Shown here one piece after another: positions 3,618 to 8,234 of a DNA stretch of 11,075 bases. The notes beneath the pieces were generated by a model that was not told the origin of the DNA, did no database searches, and was given only the letters and a program-made list of their open reading frames with translations. Location of the stretch: NCBI GenBank assembly GCA_027596945.1, contig JADGJH010001245.1, positions 1 through 11,075 on the forward strand, given 5' to 3'. The translations under genes were made by a program, and so were the position numbers. The first letter of the stretch is position 1; the number at the start of each line of letters is the position of its first letter. The stretch comes from Physocladia obscura. Its lineage: Eukaryota > Chytridiomycota > Chytridiomycetes > Chytridiales > Chytriomycetaceae.

Positions 3618-6600
3618 ATGCTGAAACACGAAACAAAATTAAGTATTCCCAAACTCAATCCGCGAAATTCACGATCAAGTTATCCAACCCTTGAGACACA
3701 GCCATACAACAAAAAACCTTGTTGTAAATCATGTTCAAAAAAGTCTTTTCGAATACGTAAATGGCCACAAAATATTATTTTAAAGGCCATCGCTTTTATT
3801 TTCCTTTTCCCGTTCTCGCGGGCATCGGAATCGCAACCATCGACGTGCCAACTTGATCAGAACCGATTCATTAATCGTAGAATTTCTATACCACTACGAC
3901 TGTCTTCACCTGAGTCAACAAACACATCTACAATACAAATTCCATTTCGCAAACGGCCTGAAAACAATAGCTTACCAACTATAAATTTTTATGTGCCGAT
4001 TCCGGAGATTTCGTTAACATGGGCTGCACTTGTTTCGACCCTGATTATGTCACTTGAAGAATTTCAAAATGTTTTTCCGACAGCGTGGATAAATTTATCA
4101 GTTTCTGTTATAGGAAATAGTTCGTTTGCAATTTCTGCTGCAGAAAATGCGGCAATAAATGGAAGTGTGGCTGGATTTATTGGTATTGCTGAAATTTTTT
4201 AGCGAATCGACACATAATTTTGTTTCCTGACATAATAAATATTTTATTCAGGGGATGCAACATACTTTGAAACTGTAGATATTGCTAATCGATTCAATAT
4301 CCCTATTTGCGAAGGATTGGGTACTTCCGGATTTTTTTTCTCATAACTTGCTTTAATCAAAAAATATTATCACTACAGACGATCGAGATACTTTATCTGA
4401 CCACAACGCCTATCCAATGTTTTTTCGAACAATTCCGTCAGTATCGAATCAAATAAATGCTATTCTCAGTTTTATACTATCTCAAGGATGGACCAATATT
4501 GTGATCGTAACATCTGCAAACTTCTCAGGTATAAATGTATTCGAGCTGCAAAAATAATGCAAAACAAATCTTCTAACAAAAACAAAAACAAAACAGGCAT
4601 AAATACATTTTTTATCAACTCAGTCAATATTCAAAAAGTTTATGCTCTTCAAAGTCCTTTAAATCTGACAGAGTGCACTTCTGTAGCCACTAGAGTCGCC
4701 TCCAGTATTATTCCAGGATCTATAATAGTATATTTCGGAGTTCCTAACGACATAAATGCAACTTGCTTTAAAACTATAAGCGCCACCGTATCTTACAATA
4801 ATGGATATTCATGGATCATTGATGATGAAACATCAAATAAAATAAGTGTTTCTATTTCTAGTCTCGAAGGAATTTTTGGATTTACTATCCGAGAAGGAAA
4901 TGGAAATGCATATGAAGCATTCTTGAACAATTGGAGAAACAGCTCTTATCAACGCAGGTTAAAAACTTCAGTTCTTTAATTTTTTTTATTAACCATACGG
5001 CTTTTTCTTGTTTTATTTTTACAAGATATCCATATATTTCAAGCTTCAGTGTTCCGCCACAAGGATTTATGTGATTCATTTTTCAATTTTATTTACTGAC
5101 TAACATGCTCAACTGATCTTTTTATTTCATTCAAAGGTTTTATCGAACTTGCTTGCAATTGATGCTAGTGGGATATGCGAAAATTATTTCATCAAACAAG
5201 TCAACAGTTAAAGCATTGTCACAAGGTTTTAATAGTGGGTGGACAAGTTCCGTCTCTGTGCCAGGATCATTTCAATTTGAAGACATCAGCACTGTAACAG
5301 GAAATGTACAATTTTTGAATGGAACTGGCGATAGAAAAGGGTTTGAGCTATTTTTGCTGTTGTTTCACTCTTTGTTTTTCTTTGAGGAATCTGAATATTG
5401 ACTGTATTAGCACAGATTTTTCGTTATAAAATATTATAATGGGTCAAATGCTGTAACTATCGGAAATTTCAATGAATCAGAAAATCTTTCAATCGACAAT
5501 CTCTTGTTGAGTAATCTTGGATGGACTAAACCCAAAGGTGAGTAATTTCGCAAAAAAAAAATTATAATAATAAAATATTTAAAAAAAAAAATTTGAAAAA
5601 CTACAAAACAGGGCCCGTTTCAGCATCAGAAAAAATTTCTTTTGATCTTGCGATAGCTATTTCTATAATCGGAACGTTGGTTGCTGTGATGCTGCTGTAC
5701 AGCTTGCATTACTTTTACAAGAAGTACAGAAAAAATGAACACAAATCATTTTATTTAGATTTCGGGCAAGATGCACAAAATTCTAATCAAACTGGAATAC
5801 TAAGTGTACATCATCTTTTTTTTGTAAAAATTATTAAATTATTTTCTAGATAACAGGAACAGGGCAGCAAGCACTTGGTATTCTCAGGAGAATGAAGCAT
5901 TCAGATCAACCGACTTTGACTAAAGTTGAAATTGATATCATCACCGATGCATTAACATCAGGAGATAATACAGCATATAATCCGCAATTTGATGTTTCTC
6001 GTAAAAGCGGTTCGGCTATGGTTGACCATGAATTGCAAGAATTTTTAATGAGTACAATGCTTGCTCAGACGAAAAGAAATACTGGTGAAGCCAGTAGTTT
6101 GGCGACACCTTTCGCTACACGAGATAGTGCTCAAATTTCTGAACATTTGAAGCCAGAAATGAGACGCAAAAAGTCTGTATTTCAAGGCATCACGGGATTG
6201 GTGTCAATGCAAGTTAAGCGGCCAGGATCTGTTAATAGTGACGTTGGTAGATCTTCTTCACCTGCTCTTCCGTCACCAGTGAGCAATGAAATAGAGCCGG
6301 TTTTTTCTCCACCAAGTCAGCGAAACCATTCATTACACGGCAATTTAGCAAAGACCTCAATAATGAAACAAACCAATGATAGTGAAGATAATACCACGAA
6401 CTATTCGCGCACCTTTAATGACTGTGGAAACATTCCATCGCCTGCAACGGGGAGGACTCGATTGGCAAAAGCTCATACAGTTAATTCAAAAAAATATCGA
6501 GCGGCTTCCATGAACTCACATGAAGGATCTTCGGGCCTTCCTTCAGGTCCAGTATCAATACATCGACGAATATCAGCATTTGCGCAAGCATTTACGCATC

Positions 6601-8234
6601 AAACATCAAATTTAAATGCTCCTCAGCCAAGTGCACAACTTCAATCGTTCAAAGAAGATGATAGTTTGCTTGAGTTGGTAGTTTCTATTCCAGATATAAA
6701 TAAGAAATATGAAGATTTCGATGTTTTATTGAAACCAGCTGTTGATGTCGGAATGATCAATTCAAAATCAGTTTTTGACTATCTAAGCAAAACTTACCTT
6801 ACTTGGAACATCGGTATCCTGTCTTAATTTTTAACGAAACACTATTTATTTAGTTATATATTAGATATGTTTCGTGTTTGTAAACTCTCTGAAGGGCATC
6901 CATTATATTTCAGTGGAGTATGGCTTATTGAAAAGACTGATCTTTTACAAAAGTTTAGGATTGACAATGAGAAGTTCAAGAAATGGCTTTTGGTAAGTTT
7001 TATTTGATATTTCATTTTCATTTTGCTCAAAACCTGCTAGCTGATGGAGTCTGAGTATCGTCCATTACCTTATCATAACTGTATTCATGCGTCAGACGTT
7101 CTTCAGTCTTTCAACTTTATTGCTTTCAATGGCCATTGGGCATCTAAATTTACACCTATTGAGAAATTATCTGGGATTGTAGCAGCAATTGGACATGATA
7201 TAGATCACCCAGTAAGTTTTCAGTGATAAAATATTTTTTAAACGCTATTTGCAGGGATTATCAAATCAGTTTCTTGTTAAAGCACGAGATCCTATAGCAA
7301 TAATGTATTCCGATGCTTCCGTGAATGAGTTTCATCATTCAGCCCACATGTTTACCAAAACATTGGCATCACCTTTCAATATATTTTCAGAGCTTTCAAG
7401 TGATGAATTCGAGGAAATGCGGCGAGTTATTGTCAAATTAATTTTGGCGACAGATATGGGAAAAGTAAAAGAAAAAAAGCAAAAAAATATATATTGCCAC
7501 TCTGAGAAATCAAATAATAAGACGAACACAGCACTTCGAAATTCTCTCGAAATTCCAATCAAAAATTGAGGCTCCTGGTTTTCAAGCTCTGGAAACTCAA
7601 GAAAATCGGCTAATGGTTTTAGAATTAGCACTTAAGTGTTCTGATTTGAGTAATCCATCAAAGCCTTACGAAGTTTCAATTCAATGGTCACAGTGTGTAA
7701 TGGAAGGTTTGAAAGCTTGTCTCCTTTTTGCTTTGTTGTTTTTGAAGAGGATACTGCAGAATTTTACAGACAAGGCGATCGCGAAAAAGCACTGGGACTA
7801 CCTGTCAGTAACTTTATGGACAGAAGCAATCCAAACGTAGCGAAATGTCAAGTGAGCTTCTTTTTTTTTATAATGATTTCTGTGATTTTCTTACTAAAAA
7901 AATTCAATAGCTTGGGTTTATAGACTTTCTCGTGGCACCTTTGTTTGCTACTTGGGCGACTTTTAACCGAGATGACATTAACAATGTCATTATGAAGACC
8001 AATATCGCTCACAATCGAAAATTATGGCAGTGCGTTGTCGCTCAAAACGATGCACCTTCAACCAAACCTGTTGGGGCACCGTCAACTGGCCATAGCAAAA
8101 GCCTGTCTTCTTTTGCATCTTCACTTTTGTCAATTACTTCCACTCCTGCAGTTCCCAATGTTCCAGAGATATTTGTCATGAAAACTTCTGTTGGGTCTGA
8201 TGTAGTTGCAATTGATAATAAAGTTTTCAAATAA
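3618..8234 (+). CDS. Receptor-type cyclic nucleotide phosphodiesterase
   Basis: Model, 15 exons: 3618-4182, 4252-4320, 4379-4528, 4597-4957, 5026-5070, 5137-5340, 5416-5537, 5612-5805, 5850-6813, 6865-6992, 7041-7211, 7255-7464, 7532-7706, 7760-7851, 7911-8234. They total 3774 nt (1257 residues plus stop), with every junction in frame and GT-AG. Residues 1-52 are a basic, Cys-containing leader; 53-66 are hydrophobic, with likely signal cleavage near A69. Residues 121-500 form a periplasmic-binding type I/ANF-receptor domain: [38 protein letters not shown], a [13 protein letters not shown] helix and [14 protein letters not shown], with over ten N-glycosylation sequons. One membrane helix spans about 518-541, followed by KKYRK. 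A Ser-rich linker follows, with RRIS (S812) and RRKKS (S679). The PDE domain, about 885-1192, has [33 protein letters not shown] and CQLGFIDF. H946 is the expected proton donor; H950, H986, D987 and D1099 the metal ligands; Q1150 the purine-binding glutamine. N1102 resembles PDE4, hinting at cAMP preference (inference). Expected action: ligand-controlled hydrolysis of cyclic nucleotide at the inner plasma membrane. The PDE call is firm; the single-transcript fusion is strongly supported by frame but untested. Confidence 0.85.

What the first reader, a model, noticed from the sequence alone, without database searches (positions are those of the whole stretch)
3618..8234. Single-pass receptor fused to a cyclic nucleotide phosphodiesterase
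The sequence shows, in one continuous 15-exon frame, an ANF/GABA-B-type ligand domain, one transmembrane helix and an intact class I PDE catalytic domain. Natriuretic-peptide-receptor guanylyl cyclases share the first two parts but make cGMP; class C GPCRs share the ligand fold but have seven helices. The nearest functional precedent I know is the choanoflagellate rhodopsin-PDE fusion, where light controls the enzyme. Here a soluble ligand (perhaps an amino acid, amine or peptide, by analogy with the fold) could control messenger breakdown directly, without a G protein. Such a sensor would suit zoospore chemotaxis. I am not aware of a described receptor of this type.
Basis: partly seen in the sequence, partly recalled or inferred. 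Interest (0 to 1): 0.88.

Follow-up and report, generated by a model that had tools for sequence, protein, structure and literature searches.

The report
Chytrid receptor fused to cyclic-nucleotide phosphodiesterase
A gene in what looks like a swimming (zoosporic) fungus appears to join an outside-facing ligand sensor, one membrane helix and an intact enzyme that destroys cyclic nucleotides, so an outside signal could switch off an inside messenger directly; the fusion is predicted from DNA and not yet confirmed by a transcript or a second species.

Summary
Window 3618-8234 + gives a 15-exon, 1257-residue open frame with two Pfam domains over their cut-offs: ANF_receptor (197-395, E 6e-13) and PDEase_I (945-1176, E 1.5e-79). 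One strong hydrophobic helix (about 514-541) lies between. The PDE keeps its metal-binding His/Asp and the invariant Gln and Phe; nearest solved relatives are PDE4, then PDE7. The ligand half is a Venus-flytrap (VFT) domain akin to class C receptors of the same genome. There, VFT and PDE profile matches coincide only here (exon by exon). About 30 residues after the helix begins a linker shared with four other PDEs of the genome, just before the first methionine available to a separate PDE gene; two genes would lie 38 bp apart. One fusion gene is the best reading. Weak points: no transcript, no orthologue (protein search off), about 190 Ser/Pro-rich residues before the PDE, ligand unknown. The amino-acid-binding Ser/Thr pair of mGlu receptors is not kept; a class C TM1 origin of the helix is not supported. 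Receptor-linked PDEs are known (rhodopsin-PDE, oomycete GPCR-PDE), so this is a new variant.

The parts
3618..8234 (+). whole gene model, 15 exons, 1257 aa: 3618-4182, 4252-4320, 4379-4528, 4597-4957, 5026-5070, 5137-5340, 5416-5537, 5612-5805, 5850-6813, 6865-6992, 7041-7211, 7255-7464, 7532-7706, 7760-7851, 7911-8234
   Evidence: single open frame; upstream stop at 3603
3771..3827 (+). hydrophobic stretch aa 52-70, possible signal peptide or signal anchor (n-region unusually long)
   Evidence: hydropathy 1.43; function inferred
3975..5536 (+). Venus-flytrap / ANF_receptor ligand domain, about aa 120-505 (exons 1-7)
   Evidence: Pfam PF01094 aa 197-395 E 6e-13; similarity to class C VFTs of the same genome; class C hits in PDB (as a profile with two paralogues)
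5635..5718 (+). single transmembrane helix aa 514-541, followed by KKYRKNEHK (positive side, predicted cytoplasmic)
   Evidence: hydropathy peak 2.44
5806..5849 (+). intron 8, joining the receptor half to the PDE half (alternatives start at 5804 and end at 5856 or 5862); if retained, a stop at 5851-5853 would end the protein soon after the helix
5850..6083 (+). PDE-side linker aa 571-648, shared with PDE genes at C637, C1194, C1100, C372
   Evidence: profile of those four scores 21.9 bits, aligned at aa 570-648 (confidently from about 576); best of 2000 shuffles 8.2
6090..6662 (+). Ser/Pro-rich low-complexity stretch aa 651-841, probably disordered
   Evidence: composition S 16.2%, P 7.9%; disorder inferred
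7071..7988 (+). class I PDE catalytic domain (Pfam core aa 945-1176; similarity to solved PDEs begins near aa 888), with H946, H950, H986, D987, D1099, N1102, Q1150, F1153
   Evidence: spans exons 11-15 with introns

Best explanation
It is one gene for a single-pass receptor phosphodiesterase. The VFT domain faces outside, one helix crosses the membrane, and a class I cyclic-nucleotide PDE (probably cAMP-preferring) sits in the cytoplasm behind a helical linker that several other PDEs of the genome also carry. Ligand closing the VFT, most likely in a dimer, would shift the helix and linker and change PDE activity, lowering (or sparing) the messenger near the membrane without a G protein. Shown here: the domains, their order in one frame, the kept catalytic residues, the shared linker. 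Inferred: splicing, topology, dimer, substrate, ligand control and its sign.
For: One open frame over 15 exons; both domains over Pfam cut-offs; catalytic His/Asp/Gln/Phe kept against PDE4D (alignment, positions); nearest solved PDEs are PDE4 then PDE7 (best 60 of 151 seen), families that depositors mostly name cAMP-specific; 14 N-glycosylation sequons before the helix (shuffle mean 8.3; 1.8% of 2000 shuffles reach 14) against 5 after it (mean 6.7); linker likeness that begins at about aa 576, before the first Met after the helix (M585); only 38 bp between the exon-8 read-through stop (5853) and that ATG (5892). Cyclic-nucleotide binders and makers exist in the genome: cNMP_binding, 24 exon matches; cyclase, 14 exon matches. 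Precedent for coupling: the 76-residue rhodopsin-PDE linker was modelled as a HAMP-like four-helix coiled coil (PMC7644710, passages).
Against: No RNA evidence and no second species. About 190 probably disordered residues between linker and enzyme make stiff mechanical coupling doubtful. The intron 8 donor (GTACAT) is far from GTAAGT, as are several others in the model. The linker profile was built from segments I chose by eye after seeing the likeness; a separate PDE starting at M585 would lose only about ten residues of it; and against PDB the linker profile found no PDE, rhodopsin-PDE not among its 3 hits. No second copy: outside C1087 only the PDE part (aa 879 on) has matches in the genome, so no other contig confirms the join.
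Confidence: 0.55

Rival explanations
1. One fusion protein, but the receptor half only places and clusters the PDE at the membrane (or at a ligand-rich site); activity is set by phosphorylation of the long Ser-rich stretch, not by conformational signal through the helix.
For: Ser/Pro-rich stretch aa 651-841; in rhodopsin-PDE too the enzyme is only loosely coupled, with about 2-fold light effect (PMC7644710 passages).
Against: A PDE-type linker sits soon after the helix, as expected for transmission.
Confidence: 0.25
2. Two neighbouring genes: a VFT receptor ending at 5853 and a separate PDE starting in exon 9.
For: Exon 8 read through intron 8 reaches a stop at 5851-5853, and an in-frame ATG follows at 5892.
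Against: Only 38 bp between them; the PDE-type linker starts about ten residues before that ATG; the three intron-8 boundaries tried keep the frame.
Confidence: 0.08
3. Both forms exist: intron 8 retention makes a decoy receptor without enzyme, splicing makes the fusion.
For: Stop right after the intron's end.
Against: No expression data; transcripts with retained introns are often degraded (general knowledge).
Confidence: 0.07
4. Assembly artefact joining two loci of a 1222-contig draft.
For: Fragmented draft; the window is a whole contig and no second copy was found.
Against: The frame runs through; third-position GC is similar in both halves (0.26 in the VFT, 0.32 in the PDE); the order helix-linker-PDE mirrors the multi-helix PDE paralogues.
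Confidence: 0.05

Closest known systems
Rhodopsin phosphodiesterase (RhoPDE/Rh-PDE) of choanoflagellates
   Same: membrane sensor fused N-terminal to a class I PDE through a helical linker (PMC7644710 abstract and passages)
   Different: sensor is a rhodopsin with TM0-TM7, not a VFT with one helix; linker is 76 residues, here a 78-residue conserved part plus about 190 low-complexity residues
Oomycete GPCR-PDE bigrams
   Same: surface receptor with C-terminal PDE, proposed to bypass G proteins (PMC5784254, PMC6033456, passages)
   Different: seven helices; reported only in oomycetes by that study; none of the passages seen gives them a VFT
Natriuretic-peptide receptor guanylyl cyclases
   Same: ANF_receptor ectodomain and one helix (recalled; the ectodomain link is mentioned in PMC5168858, passages)
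   Different: make cGMP; cyclase and kinase-like domains absent here
Class C GPCRs (GABA-B, mGlu, T1R, CaSR; fungal members)
   Same: VFT ectodomain; fungal class C receptors with ANF_receptor are described (PMC3251606, passages); related VFTs in the same genome
   Different: no seven-helix domain here; TM1 origin of the helix not supported
Kinetoplastid receptor adenylate cyclases (recalled, no call)
   Same: periplasmic-binding-protein-like ectodomain, one helix, cyclic-nucleotide enzyme inside
   Different: cyclase, not PDE

Membership tests
Class I cyclic-nucleotide PDE (PF00233) | profile match over the curated cut-off | tested here: met
   267.5 bits, cut-off 24.8
Class I cyclic-nucleotide PDE (PF00233) | two-metal His/Asp set, invariant Gln and Phe clamp | tested here: met
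   H946, H950, H986, D987, D1099, Q1150, F1153 aligned to PDE4D; residue roles recalled; one other pocket position differs from PDE4D (Tyr to Ser1110)
Class I cyclic-nucleotide PDE (PF00233) | hydrolyses cAMP or cGMP | not testable with these tools
   needs assay
VFT / ANF_receptor (PF01094) | profile match over the curated cut-off | tested here: met
   49.0 bits, cut-off 25.4, covering profile 67-277 of 353
Amino-acid-binding class C VFT | alpha-amino-acid Ser/Thr binding pair of mGlu-type VFTs | tested here: not met
   Tyr/Phe and Asp at those columns against mGlu8 (alignment; pair recalled)
Class C GPCR | seven-helix 7tm_3 domain | tested here: not met
   absent from Pfam scan to E 1; one strong helix
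Receptor guanylyl cyclase | Guanylate_cyc catalytic domain | tested here: not met
   absent from Pfam scan to E 1
Rhodopsin phosphodiesterase | retinal-binding rhodopsin sensor | tested here: not met
   absent from Pfam scan to E 1
Oomycete GPCR-PDE | seven-helix receptor domain | tested here: not met
Receptor-type (ligand-gated) PDE, as a way of working | ligand changes PDE activity | not testable with these tools
   needs expression and assay

The most novel reading that the evidence does not exclude
A new kind of enzyme-linked receptor: a single-pass receptor phosphodiesterase in zoosporic fungi, in which an extracellular ligand (not a plain alpha-amino acid) directly gates cAMP or cGMP breakdown, the mirror image of receptor guanylyl cyclases and the chemical counterpart of the light-gated cyclases that the same genome seems to encode.
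Probability: 0.4. Interest if true: 0.82.

Novelty: new variant of a known kind. Interest (0 to 1): 0.62.

Why it matters
Cells usually couple an outside ligand to PDE through a G protein, as in vision. A receptor that carries its own PDE would shorten that path to one molecule. It would give zoosporic fungi a chemical off-switch opposite to rhodopsin cyclases, offer a single-chain tool for ligand-controlled cyclic-nucleotide removal, and make the question of how zoospores read chemical cues directly testable.

Tried and rejected
Class C TM1 origin of the helix: a profile of six TM1 segments from this genome scored the window helix 6.8 bits, and 205 of 2000 shuffles did as well or better; not supported. 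Linker profile against PDB: 3 hits to E 10, best 0.16, none a PDE. IFT46 (PF12317): no match, nor in any control, so uninformative. Close relatives of the PDE part in viral contigs and prokaryote genomes: 1 and 17 pattern hits, none confirmed. Rfam (gathering thresholds) and tRNA scans of the window: nothing. Shared intron positions between the window VFT and C42/C223: none noticed by eye over the stretches compared; not computed. Papers: searches found no receptor of this architecture, judged from listings except where passages are cited (30 papers, 10 listed; 43: 0; 46: 626, 15 listed; 47: 1, off topic; 50: 1, off topic; 51: 4, passages seen in 3; 52: 5, off topic; 69: 2, both on oomycete bigrams); the library holds open-licence papers only.

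Full report
What is there. The window is the whole of contig C1087 in a 21.8 Mb, 1222-contig draft genome. From 3618 to 8234 on the + strand, fifteen exons joined by GT..AG introns of 43-75 bases give a 1257-residue protein with no stop; an in-frame stop lies just upstream at 3603. My first model misplaced intron 8 and broke the frame; corrected, the three boundaries tried for that intron all keep the frame.

Domains. Pfam gives ANF_receptor at 197-395 (49.0 bits, cut-off 25.4) and PDEase_I at 945-1176 (267.5 bits, cut-off 24.8), and otherwise only a sub-threshold Peripla_BP_6 in the same region as the first. One strong hydrophobic helix, about 514-541, is followed by KKYRKNEHK; a weaker stretch at 52-70 could be a signal peptide or anchor. 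N-glycosylation sequons are enriched before the helix (14, shuffle mean 8.3, 1.8% of 2000 shuffles as many) and not after it (5, mean 6.7), as expected if the ligand domain is outside.

The enzyme. Against solved structures (best 60 of 151 matching sequences seen) the catalytic part matches PDE4D best (E 3e-66), then other PDE4s and one chain named only 'Phosphodiesterase', then PDE7, PDE3, PDE8 and PDE9. The aligned residues that hold the metals, and the invariant Gln and Phe, are kept: H946, H950, H986, D987, D1099, N1102, Q1150, F1153 (roles recalled). One binding-site Tyr of PDE4D is Ser1110 here, as I recall it to be in PDE7. I take cAMP as the likelier substrate, but this is inference.

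The ligand domain. Alone it matches class C VFTs weakly (best T1R1, E 9e-5 and 6e-5). As a three-sequence profile with two VFTs of the same genome it matches T1R, GABA-B2, mGlu and CaSR at 5e-14 to 9e-9 (best 60 of 108 seen), but the two paralogues, which belong to seven-helix receptors, add much to that. It scores 24.6 and 33.0 bits against the class C receptors at C42 and C223, where the best of 1000 shuffles each gave 6.9 and 10.6. I compared with 2 of the 6 class C loci found. In the mGlu8 alignment the columns of the amino-acid-binding Ser and Thr hold Tyr/Phe and Asp here (pair recalled), whereas C223 seems to keep Ser and Thr (read by eye). So the ligand is probably not a plain alpha-amino acid.

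One gene or two. The genome has seven clear PDE loci (15 exon matches) and one further weak match at C309 (E 0.0066). ANF_receptor matches three loci; this exon-by-exon search is not exhaustive, since VFT-like stretches read by eye before the seven helices at C410, C926 and C90 did not reach it. The two families coincide only at C1087. The other six PDE loci, read about 2.8-4.8 kb upstream, show multi-helix N-termini (C637, C1194, C1100; in the pieces scanned no Pfam name above cut-off), a GAF domain (C372; a sub-threshold one at C20), or neither (C1033) (one or two open frames per locus scanned). Four of the six (C637, C1194, C1100, C372) carry a helical linker that also follows the helix in the window protein: the profile of the four scores 21.9 bits at 570-648, best of 2000 shuffles 8.2. 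I had picked those segments by eye, which favours the result. The confident part starts at about 576, some ten residues before M585, the first methionine after the helix, and the stop reached by reading through intron 8 (5851-5853) is 38 bases from that ATG (5892). A separate PDE gene would thus lose the start of its linker and have almost no room for a promoter. I put one fusion gene at about 0.87, the sum of the best explanation and of the two rivals that include the fusion.

How it works. The order VFT, helix, linker, PDE suggests that ligand closes the VFT and the change reaches the PDE through helix and linker. In rhodopsin-PDE a 76-residue linker was modelled as a HAMP-like coiled coil, with loose coupling and about 2-fold light effect (PMC7644710, passages). 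Here about 190 Ser/Pro-rich residues lie between linker and enzyme, which speaks against stiff coupling and keeps the tether rival alive. The sign of the effect is not known.

The organism. Radial spoke protein, chitin synthase (this profile also rings in 4 of 14 prokaryote controls), class C receptors, G-alpha and rhodopsin-cyclase-like genes together point to a zoosporic fungus, likely a chytrid; a search for IFT46 found nothing and is uninformative. The name is not known to me.

What is known. Rhodopsin-PDE and oomycete GPCR-PDE already join a sensor to a PDE; the latter were reported only in oomycetes (PMC5784254, passages). Fungal class C receptors with ANF_receptor are described (PMC3251606, passages). 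Blastocladiella has a cGMP pathway with a rhodopsin-cyclase (PMC4046227, passages). None of my searches showed a single-pass VFT-PDE. The protein database was off, so absence elsewhere is not shown. I file it as a new variant of receptor-linked PDE, not a member of any of the named receptor families beyond its two domains.

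Noticed in passing
L032 223-2022 + and L033 (- strand) = G000:C45, 22.6-29.3 kb: Two cyclase genes on opposite strands, each with helices before the cyclase. Hand-joined pieces of the L032 one match microbial rhodopsins (4 PDB hits, best E 9e-5; Pfam Bac_rhodopsin sub-threshold) and show Glu, Asp (i+4) in the third-helix motif and Glu four before the helix-7 Lys, like the NeoR set E136/D140/E262 (PMC8815786 passages). 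A possible near-infrared NeoR-type pair.
   Followed up: partly
L041 174-956 (G000:C277): Upstream of a class C seven-helix match lies a PBP_like_2 domain (PF12849, E 8.6e-10) rather than ANF_receptor; that both are one gene was judged by eye.
   Followed up: partly
L047, L048, L050 (G000:C637, C1194, C1100): Three PDEs with a multi-helix N-terminal domain that has no Pfam name above cut-off in the pieces scanned.
   Followed up: partly
L049 (G000:C372): PDE preceded in one open frame of over 800 residues by a GAF domain (PF01590 E 1.2e-9).
   Followed up: no
window 1768-3530, - strand: Two similar neighbouring genes by eye, possibly a tandem duplicate; one piece has an F-box (PF12937 E 5e-7), three other pieces gave no Pfam match.
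   Followed up: partly
window 8555-10844, - strand: Casein kinase 1 gene downstream, with long N- and C-terminal extensions by eye; one exon matches solved casein kinase-1 at E 7e-43, although Pfam named none of the three pieces scanned.
   Followed up: partly
L009/L042, L040, L044, L045, L046: Class C receptors of this genome appear to share a C-terminal region of about 120 residues after the seven helices, seen by eye.
   Followed up: no
window 5806-5853: Retention of intron 8 would end the protein soon after the helix, giving a receptor without enzyme.
   Followed up: no
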